From an uncultured Thiodictyon sp. (GTDB lineage Bacteria > Pseudomonadota > Gammaproteobacteria > Chromatiales > Chromatiaceae), in contig CAILVI010000387.1 in the NCBI GenBank assembly GCA_903837595.1, positions 21,935 through 85,934 of the forward strand: 64,000 bases of DNA. The letters run 5' to 3'. Below the pieces are notes generated by a model, which was not told where the DNA came from, ran no database searches, and was given only the letters and a program-made list of their open reading frames with translations. The position numbers and the translations under genes were made by a program. Positions 5,253 through 55,976 of the stretch are shown in pieces; the first letter of the stretch is position 1; each line of letters begins with the position of its first letter.

Positions 5253-5746
5253 ACCGGCTGTCCGCGCGTCTGCTCTGGTCGGTCCTGGCCCTGGGCTGTC
5301 TGGTCCTGGTGGTGGGGAGCTTCATCCTCACCGCCTGGATGGACCTGCGTCCTTGCCCGTTGTGCATCTTCCAGCGCCTGCTGTTCATGGTCTTGGGGCT
5401 GCTCGCCCTGGCCGCGGCCTGGCTCGGTTCGCGCCCGGCCGCCCTGCTTCCGGGACTGCTGACCCTTCCGTGCGCCGTCGGCGGGATCGGCATCGCCGCC
5501 TACCAGATCTGGCTGCAACTCCAACCGCCGGCCAGTGCCTCCTGCGGCGGCGGACCCCTGGCCTTCATCGACGTCGTGGTCGATTGGTTGGGTGATCGGC
5601 TGCCGACCCTGTTCCTTGCCACCGGCTTCTGCGAGGAGTCCGGGCCGCTGATCCTGGGGCTGACCCTGCCCCGGTGGGCGCTGGTTGGCTTCAGCGGCTA
5701 TCTGATCATTGCGCTCTGGGCCATCCTGGCCCGCCGCCGCACATGA
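5249..5746 (+). CDS. dsbB: Disulfide bond formation protein B
   Basis: 165 residues with four predicted membrane helices. DsbB reoxidises periplasmic DsbA and passes electrons to quinone. The first redox pair is in PCPLC (Cys36 and Cys39), next to the first periplasmic loop. The second pair is Cys99 (SASCGGG) and Cys128 (GFCEES) in the large second loop, matching the E. coli arrangement. The start overlaps the DUF190 stop and the stop overlaps the next ATG by 4 nt, so translation is probably coupled along the chain. No dsbA is in the window. Confidence 0.93.
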   Translation: MNRLSARLLWSVLALGCLVLVVGSFILTAWMDLRPCPLCIFQRLLFMVLGLLALAAAWLGSRPAALLPGLLTLPCAVGGIGIAAYQIWLQLQPPASASCGGGPLAFIDVVVDWLGDRLPTLFLATGFCEESGPLILGLTLPRWALVGFSGYLIIALWAILARRRT

Positions 5747-49112: not shown

Positions 49113-49613
49113 GATTGCTGGTATCTGGCTGCGGGCCTTGGTCGTCGTTCCGGCCATTGGAGGTCGAGGCTTTAGCCGGCCCGGTGCACAGGCACCACGG
49201 ACTTCTCTTTGATATGTCAGGGGCTGCCACCGGCTAACGGCCATGGTGCCCGCGCCACCCCGCAAGATGAAAGTTGCGGGCGCCTTGGCCGTTCCCCCCA
49301 CCCCGCCCTCCCCCAATAGGGGAGGGAGAATTGGAGCGCGCTCCCGGCGCGACTTTCACGGTAACGGCCATGAAGGGGGTTCCCGACACCCCGGAACATG
49401 AAAGATACTGCACGGGAGACGACGGAGAAAGGTCGATCAAGCTTTTGGCGATTTGATCCCGATCGGTAACGTGACCAGCCAGCACTGCTTCGTACCCCGG
49501 AATGGCTCGTTGTAGACCGCACGGTAAACCGACCCAGGCGCCCTGCGCCTGAGGTGAACTCAGTGTTGGCATTCGTCGTCTCCTGTGTCAACCATTACAC
49601 CCAGGGGGCCATC
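49113..49613. other. Gene-free stretch containing repeats and IS110 5' end
   Basis: 501 bp. After the dispersed element come hairpins CCCGCAA/TTGCGGG (about 49257-49279) and CCCTCCCC/GGGGAGGG (49306-49313 and 49319-49326). From roughly 49380 to the transposase ATG the sequence is unrelated to host genes and is probably the non-coding left end of the IS110 element. Confidence 0.5.
49151..49180 (-). repeat. Dispersed AAGCCTCGACC element, copy 3
   Basis: Reverse complement reads GCCGGCTAAAGCCTCGACC followed by TCCAATGGCC. Other copies are at about 14605-14629, 15561-15586 and 50904-50929. This copy and the one at 50904 flank the IS110 element. Confidence 0.7.
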
Positions 49614-50830
49614 ATGGACCTGTCACCGATTTTCCGTTGCGCCGCCGCGCTGGATGTCCACCAAGCCAAGATCACCGTGTGTGCTATCTGAGGATGCGAC
49701 CGGCCAGGTGGTGGCCGAGCTGCGGGAATTTGGTGGTTTCAAGCGTGACCGTCGCGCGATGGCGCAGTGGGTGGCCTCCTTCAAGCCGGACGTGGTGGTG
49801 ATGGAAAGCACGGGAATTTACTGGAAGAGTCCGTATGCCGCACTGGAGCAGGTGGGGATTCGCGCACTGGTGGTGAACGCCCGGCACGTCAAGCAGGTCC
49901 CAGGACGTAAGACGGACCTGGCCGATGCCCAATGGCTGGCGATTCTCGCTCGCAGCGGATGGCTGCACGGTGGCTTTGTGCCTCCGGCCAACTTACGTGA
50001 ACTGCGCCTGATCGCCCGCCAGATGCAGACGCTCACCGGCATCCTCGCAGGGGAGAAGAACCGTCTGCACAAAGTGTTGACGGATGGCGGTATCCGCTTG
50101 AGTGTGGTCGTCAGCGATCTGCATGGGAAAGCGGCGTGGGCCATGATCACGGCGCTGGTGGCGGGCGACACCCCGTCACAGGTCTTGCACCATGCCAGCC
50201 AGCGTCTGAAGGCGACGGAGCAAGAATTGCTCGATGCCTTGGACGGGGATCTCAGCGAGTCCCATCGCTTCGTCCTCGCCCAAGTGATGGATCACGTGGA
50301 TGATTTGGAACGGCGCATTGCCTGCTTTCGTGCCAAACTGTTGGCCGGGCTGGCGCCACAACAGGGGTTGTTGAACGCCTTACAGACCATCCCCGGACTG
50401 GATGAATTGGGGGCGGCCCTGCTGCTGGTGGAAATCGGCGATGACATGCAGGCGTTTGGGACGGCGGAGAGGCTGGCCTCGTGGGCGGGGGTCTGTCCGG
50501 CCAATCATGAGTCGGCGGGCAAGCGCCAGAATGGCAAACAGCGCAAAGGCAATCCCTACGTGCGCCGGCTGTTATGCGAAGCGGCCCAGGCCGCCAGCCG
50601 GACCCGTTGCGGCCTCGCGGAGAAGTTCAAGGCGCTGCTCGTGCGTCGCGGACGCAAACGCGCGATATTCGCGCTGGCTCACAAGTTGTCAAAGTTGGTC
50701 TTCATTATCATCCCCCGTGGCGATTATTACCGGGATGCCACGGTCGATTATGAAGCCATGAGCGTGGCCCGTAACGCCCCACGCTGGATCAAGATGCTCA
50801 CGAAGCACGGCTACCTCGCCGCCTGAACAG
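49380..50830 (+). mobile_element. IS110-family insertion sequence (ends approximate)
   Basis: Defined by its DEDD transposase. IS110-family elements usually lack terminal inverted repeats and target duplications, so the boundaries cannot be read directly; the left end is estimated from the change in sequence character after the CCCTCCCC hairpin region, and the right end from the transposase stop. Dispersed palindromic elements lie on both sides (49151 and 50904), consistent with the habit of this family of inserting into REP-like targets. Confidence 0.6.
49614..50826 (+). pseudogene. IS110 transposase with N-terminal frameshift
   Basis: The natural start is ATG 49614 (RBS GGGGG), giving MDLSPIFRCAAALDVHQAKITV and then a stop. 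The remainder (VLSEDATGQVVAELREFGGF...) is in another frame. The break lies in the run GTGTGTG at about 49677-49683, where one extra GT would restore the frame. The DEDD catalytic residues are split: the first Asp (LDVHQAK) is in the short frame, while Glu (VMESTGIYW) and two Asp (KTDLADAQWL) are downstream. The C-terminal Tnp20-type domain is intact (TIPGLDELGAALLL, PANHESAGKRQNG). Total length about 404 residues. It is inactive unless the frame is restored by slippage or the indel is a sequencing error. Confidence 0.85.
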
Positions 50831-52319: not shown

Positions 52320-52790
52320 CTAGTACACGAATCCCAGCGCGGTGCGCAGCGTGACGGCGTCGCCGATGAAGCGGACGGACGTGATGGTCCCGTCCACCGA
52401 CTCCATCAGGGTCACCTTGCCCGGGGCGCGTGGCAGCATGGCCGTCTCAGCAGCGGTTCGCCCCAGCAACATCGGGTATGGCCGTTTACGCATCTTTGGC
52501 AGCGCGAAGGCCGCGGCCACCAGCCCCGGCATCCCGCTGATGTCGGCGACGTAGCGTACCTTTGCGGCGTCGAGTGTCTGTGCGGTCTGGCCGTCGAGTG
52601 CGGTCTCGACCACTGCCGAGGGCGTGCGTTCGGCGGCGAAGATCAGGTAGTGTGTGCCGGGTGTGACGGTCTGAGGTGCATCATGCTGGTCCTTCAGGGT
52701 CAGGACGGGCAGGGGGGAACCGACCTGCAGCGTGGCAGCGGCGAGGAGTGCGGAGAACAGGAGTAGGGAGATAAGAACGGCGGTTTTCAT
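52320..52790 (-). CDS. Exported thioredoxin-fold-like protein, no active-site Cys
   Basis: 156 residues with signal peptide (VLISLLLFSALLAAAT). The mature start VGSPLPVLTLKDQHDAPQTV resembles the opening of YtfJ/AhpC-like thioredoxin folds (xGxxxPxxxLxDQ), followed by HYLIFAAERTPSA and LLGRTAAETAMLP. There is no CxxC and no cysteine at all, so it is not a redox enzyme. Probably a periplasmic protein of unknown role. Confidence 0.65.
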   Translation of the reverse strand: MKTAVLISLLLFSALLAAATLQVGSPLPVLTLKDQHDAPQTVTPGTHYLIFAAERTPSAVVETALDGQTAQTLDAAKVRYVADISGMPGLVAAAFALPKMRKRPYPMLLGRTAAETAMLPRAPGKVTLMESVDGTITSVRFIGDAVTLRTALGFVY

Positions 52791-53309: not shown

Positions 53310-53663
53310 TTATCCGTTGCAGTTTGCCATACAGAGAGTCTGTTGCGTCTCGCAATTTATCGTGCAGTGTTCTTGCATTGCGGCACAATTCTCTAAGCAT
53401 TGAATATCCCCCAACATGCACGACTCGGTGCACTGCGCTTCGATCGGGATGCAATTGCCCGCGCACTGCCTTTGCCGGGCGGCGCATTTTCCCGTGCACG
53501 CGCGGAACAAGTCCGAGTTAGCTGCGAGGACCAGGCGTCCGGCGTGATGCGTTTTTTCCGCGTAGCCTTGGTACGCTGTATCGAAATTACCCGTATCGTT
53601 CCCGGCGATAACGATGGCGGAAAACAGCGCAAATAGGACAGTTGACAGAACGATACGCTTCAT
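53310..53663 (-). CDS. Secreted protein with six CxxxC hendecad repeats
   Basis: 117 residues. A signal peptide (MKRIVLSTVLFALFSAIVIAG) is followed by about 33 cysteine-free residues. From residue 56 all twelve cysteines fall in six units of C-x3-C-x6: Cys 56/60, 67/71, 78/82, 89/93, 100/104 and 111/115, an exact 11-residue period with no exception. Units read CTGKC, CAGNC, CTESC, CLENC, CTINC and CMANC. If helical, an 11-residue period keeps all cysteines on one face. This could be a Cu(I)-binding or disulfide-stapled helical array; the family is not recognised. It lies downstream of the NB-ARC gene on the same strand. Confidence 0.8.
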   Translation of the reverse strand: MKRIVLSTVLFALFSAIVIAGNDTGNFDTAYQGYAEKTHHAGRLVLAANSDLFRACTGKCAARQRQCAGNCIPIEAQCTESCMLGDIQCLENCAAMQEHCTINCETQQTLCMANCNG

Positions 53664-53798: not shown

Positions 53799-55976
53799 CT
53801 ATTTTCGTGGCTTTGCCTTCTTGGCGGTGCCGCCCTTCTTGAACGAGGGGATACGAAACCCGGGACGTTTGATCCGGCTGAGGAGTTGGGCCGCGTTCAG
53901 GGTCTGCGGGTGCTTGGCGCCGAGGAGTTGCCGGAAGAGGTCGTAGGCGGCCTGGGCCTGCGAATAGGCTTCGTTGGTCTTGCCGAGCTTCAACAGATAG
54001 CCCGCGGTGGTTTGCAGACCCCTGGCCGTGGCGGGGTGTCGCAGGCCGAACAGTTCGTGGTAGATGGCAAGCCCCTGTTGGGCCAGATCCAGGGCGTGCT
54101 GCTGCTCGCCCTGCGCGCTCAAGTAGGTGGCCATGGTGTTGAGGCTGATTGCCGTGTCGGGGTGCCGGTCGCCGAAGAGGCTGCGGTGGATGGTCAGGGC
54201 CTCCCCGGCCAGTTCCAGTGCCCGCTGCGGCTCGCCCAGGGCATTAGTGAAATAGGCGACGCTCGCCAGCGACGCGGCGGTCGCTGGATGGTTGTCGCCG
54301 TAGAGGTCGCGGTGGATGGCCAGCGCCTGGCTTGCCATGTCCAGGGCGTGTTGCTGGTTGCCGAGGTTATAGGTGTAGGTGGCGATGTTGCTCAGCGACA
54401 CGGCGGTGTCGGGATGCCGCTCGCCATGGAGTGCGCGGCGGATGGCGAGCGACTGCTCGGTCAGTTCCAGGGCGCGCAACGGGTCGCCGAGCATGTCGGC
54501 GTAGTGGGCACAATTGGCGAGCGACCTGGCCGTATCCGGATGCTCATCACCATAGAGCCCACGGCGCAGCGTGAGTGCCTGCTGCACCTCTTGCTGTGCG
54601 CGCTTCGACTCCCCGAGCGCGTCCAGCGCGAAGGCCAGGTCATGGTGCAGGCAGGCCAGCAGTGCCTGGTCATCACACCCGTGCTGTTTGTGTTCGGCCA
54701 GTCCCTGTTCAAGCAGCCGCCGGACCTCCTCCGGCTGGCCGCGCTGCAAGGGCACATAGATTCCAAGCCAGCTGAGCCGGGTGGCAAGCGTTGGTGCACA
54801 TTGCACGGCGTGCTTATGCCATTCACGCAGATGGTCCAGCTCGGCCTCGAAGCGCGGCAGCTGTTGCGGGTCATCAAGCAGGGGGCTGAACCAGGCAATG
54901 ATCCGCGCGCACTGTTGCGCCGCCCAGTCGGGCCGATCGGCGATCGGCGCCTGCTCGCGGCGGGACTGCGCGACCCGCCGGTGCAGGGCATAACGGTCGG
55001 TCCCCGGCACCGGCCGGAGGATGGCGAGCTGCGTGCCGAGCTCCAGCGCGGCGGTGAGTTCGGCGCCGTCTGCGGCTCCCACCATCGCGACCAGCAGGTC
55101 GCGACCCATGGGTGCCGGAGCACTCCAGGCGAGCACGTCCAGGACGGCCGGCAAGAGCGGCTGCTTGGCGCAGCCCTCCATCCCGATGCGCAGGACGCAA
55201 TCCAGAACCGCCCCGTGCCCGCTGTCCTGGCGTAGCCGTTGGAGAGAGTCCTGGAACCGCATCGCGCCATGCGCCAGCTGGGCGCCGGCCAGTTCCAAGG
55301 CCAGCGGCAGGCCGTCCAGGGTGCGGGCAATCTCGCGGGCGGCGGTGAGTTCCGCGTCGCCATCCGGGGCGCGGCCGGCCGTCTGGATCAGTAGCCGCAG
55401 GGCTGCCGCCGGGTCCAGTCGATCGATGACGACCGCCGTGAACTGCGGTTGCCCGGTGTGGCTGGTAATCAGGATCTGTGTCGTCGTGGCCGGCTCGGGC
55501 AGGTAGTCGCGCAGCGCCGCCGGGTCTTGCACGTTGTCGAAGACGATCAAGCAGTCCGCGACGCTGCGCAGCCGGTGGCGGGTGATCTCCAGGACGTAAC
55601 GGCGTTCGGACTCGGGCGCGATCCAGCCGGCCTTGACCGCCAGGTCCGCGAGTTGGGCCTCTAGGTCCCCATCGGCAGATAGCCAGATGACGCCGTTGGG
55701 ATACTGATCCCGATAGCGATAGGCGTACTCCACGGCCGTCTGGGTCTTGCCCAGGCCGCAGAGGTCGGATGCCGCCGGCTGGGTGATGTTGGTCCGGCGC
55801 CTGGCGCTGAGCTGTTGCCGCACTTCTTCCAGCACCGTCTCCTGGCCGATGAACCGATCGCCCAGCTGCCGGTAGGGGACCGAAAAGACCGGCCGGCGCG
55901 GATCGTAGTCGGCGACGCCCTCGGGAGCCGCATCAGGGGTGAGATCGGTCGGGTTGGTGCTGTGGTCTACGGTCAT
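53799..55976 (-). CDS. STAND/NB-ARC NTPase with kinesin-light-chain-type TPRs
   Basis: 725 residues. The NTPase starts after RFIGQETVLEEVRQQL. The P-loop reads DLCGLGKTQTA (71-81): the first Gly of GxxxxGKT is Asp71, and a Gly in the middle is Cys, although GKT is intact. Walker B is CLIVFDNVQDP. Next come a winged-helix-like arm (LPLALELAGAQLAHG) and, from about 430 to 700, at least five 42-residue TPRs of the kinesin light chain type (GDEHPDTARSLANCA, GERHPDTAVSLSNIA, GDNHPATAASLASVA, GDRHPDTAISLNTMA). The tail is Lys/Pro-rich and basic. Such proteins are sensor switches, often in signalling or phage defence. No effector domain is visible. Confidence 0.87.
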   Translation of the reverse strand: MTVDHSTNPTDLTPDAAPEGVADYDPRRPVFSVPYRQLGDRFIGQETVLEEVRQQLSARRRTNITQPAASDLCGLGKTQTAVEYAYRYRDQYPNGVIWLSADGDLEAQLADLAVKAGWIAPESERRYVLEITRHRLRSVADCLIVFDNVQDPAALRDYLPEPATTTQILITSHTGQPQFTAVVIDRLDPAAALRLLIQTAGRAPDGDAELTAAREIARTLDGLPLALELAGAQLAHGAMRFQDSLQRLRQDSGHGAVLDCVLRIGMEGCAKQPLLPAVLDVLAWSAPAPMGRDLLVAMVGAADGAELTAALELGTQLAILRPVPGTDRYALHRRVAQSRREQAPIADRPDWAAQQCARIIAWFSPLLDDPQQLPRFEAELDHLREWHKHAVQCAPTLATRLSWLGIYVPLQRGQPEEVRRLLEQGLAEHKQHGCDDQALLACLHHDLAFALDALGESKRAQQEVQQALTLRRGLYGDEHPDTARSLANCAHYADMLGDPLRALELTEQSLAIRRALHGERHPDTAVSLSNIATYTYNLGNQQHALDMASQALAIHRDLYGDNHPATAASLASVAYFTNALGEPQRALELAGEALTIHRSLFGDRHPDTAISLNTMATYLSAQGEQQHALDLAQQGLAIYHELFGLRHPATARGLQTTAGYLLKLGKTNEAYSQAQAAYDLFRQLLGAKHPQTLNAAQLLSRIKRPGFRIPSFKKGGTAKKAKPRK

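What the first reader, a model, noticed from the sequence alone, without database searches (positions are those of the whole stretch)
53310..53663. Exported protein with an exact 11-residue CxxxC repeat
All twelve cysteines sit at 56/60, 67/71, 78/82, 89/93, 100/104 and 111/115 of a 117-residue secreted protein. The period is 11 without a single deviation, while the residues between vary freely, so the cysteine lattice is what is selected. An 11-residue (hendecad) helix would put every cysteine on one face. Copper storage proteins (Csp) also use CxxxC on helices to hold Cu(I), but they have no such regular array as far as I know; alpha-hairpinins use CxxxC pairs for disulfides. Either a metal sponge or a disulfide-stapled rod is possible.
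Basis: partly seen in the sequence, partly recalled or inferred. Interest (0 to 1): 0.8.

Follow-up and report, generated by a model that had tools for sequence, protein, structure and literature searches.

The report
Disulfide-ladder helical hairpin exported by bacteria
A small exported bacterial protein carries twelve cysteines in perfect 11-residue register, most likely so that a two-helix hairpin can be locked shut by a ladder of up to six disulfide bonds; unnamed four-rung relatives occur in other bacteria, and a similar fold is known from a marine-worm toxin.

Summary
The 117-residue ORF at 53310-53663 (-) has a Sec-type signal peptide and 12 cysteines, all on a C-x3-C-x6 lattice. The interpretation shifts. 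Pattern and profile searches found an unannotated class of exported bacterial proteins with this lattice, mostly with four CX3C motifs; the window protein and L062 have six. In 18 non-redundant four-motif proteins the outer linkers are always 6 residues, usually with a bulky residue at position 4 (28 of 36); the middle linker varies (4, 5, 6, 12) and is turn-like. In 20 hairpins of three large proteins cysteines are present or absent in mirror pairs (20 of 20; 27 of 28 with two proteins left out), as nested disulfides predict. AlphaFold2 gives helix-turn-helix for the window protein and a relative. The closest solved structure is neurotoxin B-IV, a disulfide-linked helical hairpin (not significant). 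So it is most likely a disulfide-stapled alpha-hairpin, not one hendecad rod or a Csp; the unbroken period at the centre is a six-residue turn. Oxidation state and function are unshown. Beyond cysteines the window protein shows no similarity to the class, so common descent is unproven.

The parts
53310..53663 (-). gene of the 117-aa exported CX3C-array protein (stop codon included)
53604..53663 (-). signal peptide, residues 1-20 (Sec-type by inspection: MKR, hydrophobic core, V-x-A cleavage; no twin Arg, no Cys before 56)
   Evidence: sequence; no signal-peptide predictor was run
53499..53603 (-). linker, residues 21-55; model confidence below 50 for residues 22-46
53418..53498 (-). arm A, residues 56-82: three CX3C motifs separated by 6
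   Evidence: helix 46-79
53400..53417 (-). central linker, residues 83-88 (MLGDIQ), proposed turn
   Evidence: non-helical 80-86; relatives' middle linkers
53319..53399 (-). arm B, residues 89-115: three CX3C motifs separated by 6
   Evidence: helix 87-115
5267..5722 (+). DsbB domain in the same window (disulfide-generating machinery of the host; not an operon partner)
   Evidence: PF02600, 108 bits

Best explanation
The protein is exported by Sec and oxidised in the envelope by the Dsb system. It folds as an antiparallel two-helix hairpin: arm A (residues 56-82), a turn at MLGDIQ, arm B (89-115). The two cysteine faces meet, and the nested pairs 82-89, 78-93, 71-100, 67-104, 60-111 and 56-115 form a ladder of up to six disulfides that replaces a hydrophobic core. 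The result would be a short, protease-resistant rod about 4 nm long whose outer surface is free to change. Shown: the lattice; the class of exported proteins with it; fixed outer and variable middle linkers; mirror-paired cysteine presence in relatives; the predicted hairpin. Inferred: the oxidised state, the exact pairing in this protein, and any binding or structural role of the rod.
For: Four-motif relatives: outer linkers 6 in 36 of 36, middle 6/5/4/12 in 11/4/2/1 of 18 non-redundant proteins; bulky residue at linker position 4 in 28 of 36 outer and 0 of 11 six-residue middle linkers; turn formers 0.58 middle vs 0.30 outer; permutation p 2e-5 each for turn formers and for aromatics (parse with free linker lengths). 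Mirror test in L283, L285, L294: Cys at -7 matches +7 in 20 of 20 hairpins, -11 matches +11 in 20 of 20; off-mirror combinations agree in 4 of 20. These three were chosen; with L284 and L262 added, my hand count is 27 of 28 for each pair. AlphaFold2, window residues 22-117, single sequence: helices 46-79 and 87-115, ten-residue block means 80-92 over the array. Relative L260 with 23 sequences: helices 6-20 and 27-44, five models at mean pLDDT 81-83.5. Both six-motif proteins have G-D at positions 3-4 of the central linker. Rigid two-helix geometry lets all six nested pairs reach CB-CB 3.65-3.92 A, while i,i+4 in one helix is 6.3-6.4 A. The nearest solved structure by profile (E 0.094) and by Foldseek on L260 (rank 1, E 0.87) is 1vib, a helical hairpin with four disulfides (PMC6410017, passages). 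DsbB is in the host and in this window.
Against: The five single-sequence models of the window protein had mean pLDDT 74.8, 62, 59, 51 and 39; only the best was seen. A profile of the four-motif class (A5, 23 rows, window protein and L062 excluded) scores the window array no better than Cys-preserving shuffles (34.7 vs 35.4 +- 5.1 bits; 589 of 1000 shuffles reach it), prefers the central register by only 3.5 bits (62 of 400 shuffles reach it), and for the other six-motif protein L062 prefers an off-centre register. The arms here lack the bulky position-4 residues of the class (Q, E, Q, Q). Pro73 lies within the predicted helix A. Geometry also allows a parallel in-register dimer. Structure-library matches are all non-significant. 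The mirror test rests on three proteins chosen after the fact, two of them (L285, L294) apparently homologous, and on neither six-motif protein; two other proteins each hold one asymmetric parse (L284, L262). No thiol or mass data exist.
Confidence: 0.75

Rival explanations
1. Cu(I)/Zn(II) thiolate sponge: the cysteines stay reduced and hold metal on the helix faces, perhaps in a dimer forming a four-helix bundle as in Csp proteins.
For: CXXXC pairs on single helices bind Cu(I) in Csp3 (PMC5171941, passages); reduced small Tims, which carry a twin CX3C motif, bind Zn (PMC3759932, passages); 12 Cys on two faces.
Against: The exported Csps named in PMC12510493 and PMC5171941 (passages) carry Tat signals, this protein a Sec-type one; no Pfam or NCBIfam match at E <= 1; mirror-paired presence and aromatic spacers in the class fit disulfides better; DsbB present.
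Confidence: 0.12
2. One continuous hendecad helix that forms parallel or antiparallel dimers stapled between chains.
For: Lattice angles of one arm on an ideal helix span only 80 degrees; a parallel in-register dimer of one arm meets the disulfide distance as well as the hairpin.
Against: The middle linker of relatives varies in length and is turn-like while the outer ones are fixed; both AlphaFold2 models break there.
Confidence: 0.08
3. Orphan or chance ORF, or a very young gene without a settled fold: no relative in the genus, low GC, no promoter found.
For: No match at E <= 0.01 in 54 of 54 other genomes, 7 congeners included; GC 54% vs 67%; no sigma-70-type promoter-like site and no clear ribosome-binding site by eye.
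Against: Signal peptide plus a lattice that chance would hardly give; the same architecture in exported proteins of distant bacteria.
Confidence: 0.05

Closest known systems
Neurotoxin B-IV of the nemertean Cerebratulus lacteus (PDB 1VIB; nemertide beta relatives)
   Same: Helical hairpin with four disulfides (PMC6410017 passages); CX3C-x6 spacing with a Tyr at position 4 of the first x6, as in the bacterial class (alignment).
   Different: Animal toxin; one CX2C in place of CX3C and a longer central loop; 8 not 12 Cys; match not significant (E 0.094 by profile, 0.87 by Foldseek), so no descent is claimed.
Plant alpha-hairpinins / vicilin-buried peptides
   Same: Helix-loop-helix stapled by CX3C pairs (PMC11591084 passages); walnut vicilin Jug r 2 is a weak profile hit (E 0.95).
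   Different: One CX3C per arm (4C: CX3C-X4-20-CX3C) or CX3CX3C (6C) in that paper, which treats plants; not CX3C-x6-CX3C arms.
Mitochondrial small Tim proteins (twin CX3C)
   Same: Oxidised form is helix-loop-helix with nested disulfides C1-C4 and C2-C3 (PMC3759932 passages).
   Different: One CX3C per arm, hexameric complexes, eukaryotic.
Bacterial copper storage proteins (Csp1/Csp3, DUF326)
   Same: Cys-lined helices with CXXXC, some exported (PMC5171941 and PMC12510493 passages).
   Different: Four-helix bundle, Tat signal in the exported ones described there; no profile match here. That they lack a regular period is recalled.

Membership tests
Copper storage protein (Csp, DUF326) | profile match to a Csp/DUF326 family | tested here: not met
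   0 Pfam and 0 NCBIfam families at E <= 1
Copper storage protein (Csp, DUF326) | Tat signal when exported | tested here: not met
   N-terminus MKRIVLST, no twin arginine (by eye); criterion from PMC12510493 and PMC5171941 passages
Copper storage protein (Csp, DUF326) | four-helix-bundle monomer | tested here: not met
   two helices in the array by AlphaFold2, prediction only
Copper storage protein (Csp, DUF326) | binds many Cu(I) ions | not testable with these tools
   needs purified protein
alpha-hairpinin | 4C (CX3C-X4-20-CX3C) or 6C (CX3CX3C-X4-20-CX3CX3C) motif | tested here: not met
   arms are CX3C-x6-CX3C-x6-CX3C, 12 Cys; criterion from PMC11591084 passages, which allow only one or two further Cys outside the core motif
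alpha-hairpinin | helix-loop-helix fold | tested here: met
   predicted only
Neurotoxin B-IV family | significant sequence similarity | tested here: not met
   class profile vs PDB: E 0.094; window protein alone gave no such hit
Neurotoxin B-IV family | helical hairpin cross-linked by disulfides | tested here: inconclusive
   hairpin predicted; disulfides not observed
small Tim (twin CX3C) | twin CX3C, one per helix | tested here: not met
   six motifs
the bacterial CX3C-x6 exported class described here | signal peptide, CX3C motifs with x6 linkers in each arm | tested here: met
the bacterial CX3C-x6 exported class described here | sequence similarity beyond the cysteines | tested here: not met
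   34.7 bits vs 35.4 +- 5.1 for Cys-preserving shuffles

The most novel reading that the evidence does not exclude
Distantly related bacteria make an unnamed class of exported disulfide-ladder hairpins in which nested disulfides stand in for a hydrophobic core and length is set by adding 11-residue CX3C rungs (8 Cys as the common form, 12 here, hairpins strung in series in some large proteins). Their geometry matches a nemertean toxin, reached either by convergence or by transfer.
Probability: 0.55. Interest if true: 0.65.

Novelty: new variant of a known kind. Interest (0 to 1): 0.52.

Why it matters
It gives a fold and a testable disulfide map to bacterial proteins that matched no relevant Pfam or NCBIfam family here, and a rule (fixed six-residue arm linkers, free middle turn, mirror-paired cysteines) by which more can be found. 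If right, it is a modular, length-adjustable covalent rod made by Sec and Dsb, of use to protein design, and a bacterial parallel to animal and plant helical-hairpin peptides.

Tried and rejected
Close-homologue searches found nothing beyond the gene itself: 55 genomes incl. own, genome contigs, viral contigs; plasmids gave one hit that I judge chance (24% identity, E 0.2), and L062's protein found none there. Most in-frame readings looked like antisense, low-complexity or simple-repeat frames (by eye). After filtering six genome loci were kept as exported members (L023, L035, L058, L062, L067, L099). Rows that also passed the filter but that I judged not to be members: L030, L081, L090, L121, L169, L181, L210.

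Profile hits dropped: L245, L246, L247, L250 (three motifs in a 64-aa frame), L258, L259, L261, L262/L288. L281 (four in-lattice motifs in a 767-aa frame) and L296 (arms of unequal length) were left out of the 18-protein count, in which near-identical proteins were collapsed by hand. In one search, ORFs with more than 25% Cys or more than 42% R+S+P were skipped. Left out of the mirror count: L284 (one of six parses asymmetric) and L262 (one of two). L285 and L294 look homologous to each other, so the 20 hairpins are not 20 independent events.

MAFFT aligned the six-motif L062 one unit out of register; it was dropped before the second AlphaFold2 job. Neighbour ORFs of 12 relatives shared no obvious theme by eye (no profile search was run on them). 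A general antimicrobial role by charge is not indicated: domain net charge runs from -6 to +11, -3 here. Literature searches for such bacterial proteins showed none in the papers listed; the lists were capped at 20 of 22 and 20 of 67. I saw passages only of PMC11591084, PMC12510493, PMC6410017, PMC5171941 and PMC3759932, and listings of the rest.

Full report
What is there. The minus-strand ORF 53310-53663 encodes 117 residues. Residues 1-20 look like a Sec signal peptide (by inspection; no predictor was run). All 12 cysteines lie at 56/60, 67/71, 78/82, 89/93, 100/104 and 111/115. Of all placements of 12 Cys in 117 residues, 58 of 7.7e15 are such a lattice. Units share more than cysteines: non-Cys codons at equal phase are 40% identical against 28.6% +- 2.3% in shuffles (p = 0.0002), so partial duplication of a 33-base unit is likely. 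The gene is 54% GC in a 67% GC window. No sigma-70-type promoter-like site was found near it. No Pfam or NCBIfam family matched at E <= 1; the best PDB hits, E 0.9 to 1.4, cover residues 23-61, that is almost none of the array.

Where it occurs. The genome is 7.79 Mb in 576 contigs. A protein search matched 1 of 55 genomes at E <= 0.01, its own; none of 7 congeners and none of the other 47 relatives. It is thus an orphan at genus level as far as tested.

Relatives by architecture. After reading frames, composition and an upstream hydrophobic start, I kept six exported proteins besides the window's. By record title they are L023 (Deltaproteobacteria MAG), L035 (uncultured bacterium), L058 (Acidiferrobacteraceae MAG), L062 (Pseudorhodoplanes sinuspersici MAG), L067 (Thermoanaerobaculia MAG) and L099 (Myxococcota MAG, two arrays). 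L062, like the window protein, has exactly six motifs and 12 lattice cysteines. A 44-column profile (A1, which contains the window protein) then matched, at E <= 0.001 unless stated: 4 of 194 genomes of the window's family (E <= 0.01; only the own genome strongly), 3 of 369 of its class, 2 of 398 of its phylum, 2 of 240 of L062's class, 2 of 5 of L099's phylum and 8 of 195 of L023's phylum. A second profile (A2, E <= 0.01) matched 32 of 189 genomes of L023's phylum and 8 of 199 of L067's phylum. The tallies include chance hits; the matches that I read are. The class is rare in the window's own class and commoner in L023's phylum. Of 23 domain sequences in alignment A5 one touched a Pfam model (PPR, E 0.049) and the others none at E <= 0.1; NCBIfam was the same. 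Among eight full-length relatives the only match above a curated cut-off was TSP_3 in L282, at residues 74-100, after its CX3C domain; a few weaker hits lay below cut-off, one of them (DUF7478, E 0.003, L282) across the domain.

The anatomy of the class. With linker lengths left free, 27 of 30 open frames holding exactly four CX3C motifs have both outer linkers of six residues, while among these 27 the middle one is 6 in 20 and 4, 5 or 12 in 7; the three exceptions (L261 second frame, L262, L288) are frames I do not count as members (several loci repeat one protein). In 18 non-redundant proteins the outer linkers are 6 in 36 of 36. Position 4 of the outer linkers is bulky in 28 of 36 (20 aromatic), against 0 of 11 six-residue middle linkers. 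Turn-forming residues make up 58% of middle and 30% of outer linkers; the contrasts for turn formers and for aromatics have permutation p 2e-5 each. Both profiles contained only six-residue linkers, outer and middle alike, so they cannot have produced the contrast. L296 has arms of different length around an 11-residue middle linker. The plain reading is two helices, each with cysteines at 0, 4, 11, 15 and a bulky residue at 8, joined by a turn.

Mirror pairs. Three large proteins from L023's phylum (L283, L285, L294) hold 7, 7 and 6 CX3C-turn-CX3C hairpins. Cysteines at -7/+7 from the inner motifs agree in 20 of 20 (11 both present, 9 both absent; Fisher p 6e-6), at -11/+11 in 20 of 20 (5 present, 15 absent; p 6e-5). 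The off-mirror combinations agree in 4 of 20. These proteins were chosen. Adding L284 (6 parses) and L262 (2), each with one asymmetric parse, gives 27 of 28 for either pair by my hand count. Cysteines that are present or absent together are what nested disulfides predict. Hairpins within a protein, and L285 with L294, are related, so the p-values overstate the independence.

Structure. AlphaFold2 on window residues 22-117, single sequence: helices 46-79 and 87-115, a break at 80-86 covering C82 and the central MLGD, block mean pLDDT 80-92 over the array; the four other models were less confident (62, 59, 51, 39). L260 with 23 sequences: helices 6-20 and 27-44, all five models at 81-83.5. A rigid two-helix calculation brings all six nested pairs to CB-CB 3.65-3.92 A with standard helices and to 3.8 A at 11 residues per three turns; same-helix i,i+4 pairs stay at 6.3-6.4 A; a parallel dimer is equally possible by geometry alone. 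Foldseek on the window model gave nothing significant (53 matches at E <= 10, best 2.9). On L260 the first of 7 hits was 1vib, neurotoxin B-IV (E 0.87, 41 alignment columns), the second acrorhagin I (E 1.9). The class profile against PDB sequences also put 1vib first of four (E 0.094). B-IV is described as a helical hairpin with four disulfides (PMC6410017, passages). Neither score is significant alone; their agreement, on one structure of known topology, is the useful point.

Oxidation. DsbB is found in the own genome twice, one copy at window 5267-5722, and in 7 of 8 genomes of the genus. A Sec-exported protein should meet this system. The exported Csps described in PMC12510493 and PMC5171941 (passages) instead carry Tat signals. 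This is inference, not observation.

What does not fit. The window protein's arms lack the bulky position-4 residues (Q, E, Q, Q). Its residues between cysteines match the class profile no better than shuffles (34.7 vs 35.4 +- 5.1 bits; 589 of 1000 shuffles reach it), the central register is only weakly preferred (62 of 400 shuffles do as well), and L062 prefers an off-centre register. Pro73 is inside predicted helix A. So the class-wide hairpin is better supported than the exact 3+3 ladder of this protein, and common descent is open.

Verdict. A disulfide-stapled alpha-hairpin of up to six rungs is the best explanation (0.75). It works like B-IV, alpha-hairpinins and oxidised small Tims, but failed a defining feature of each of these families and of Csp. 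Biological role is unknown; a protease-proof surface or periplasmic rod is my guess, since several relatives carry lipobox-like starts (L264, L286, L291, L035; by eye) and others string hairpins in large proteins.

Noticed in passing
window 49585-50826 (+): IS110-family transposase (PF01548, PF02371), about 2.5 kb from the array gene; possible source of local rearrangement.
   Followed up: partly
window 53799-55976 (-): 725-aa TPR protein directly upstream on the same strand, close to NF040586 (FxSxx-COOH system TPR protein; 274.5 bits, cut-off 300).
   Followed up: no
window 52320-52790 (-): 156-aa ORF with a signal-like start, downstream of the array gene; no Pfam or NCBIfam match at E <= 1.
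   Followed up: no
L283, L285, L294: Large proteins from L023's phylum (371, 555 and 520 aa frames) made of serial CX3C hairpins with mirror-symmetric extra cysteines.
   Followed up: partly
L099 1517-2182 (-): Myxococcota MAG protein with two successive arrays of five CX3C motifs each.
   Followed up: no
L271-L276, L278: Near-identical four-CX3C exported proteins in several genomes of L023's phylum (L271, L273-L276; and the pair L272, L278), the best-conserved branch of the class seen here.
   Followed up: no
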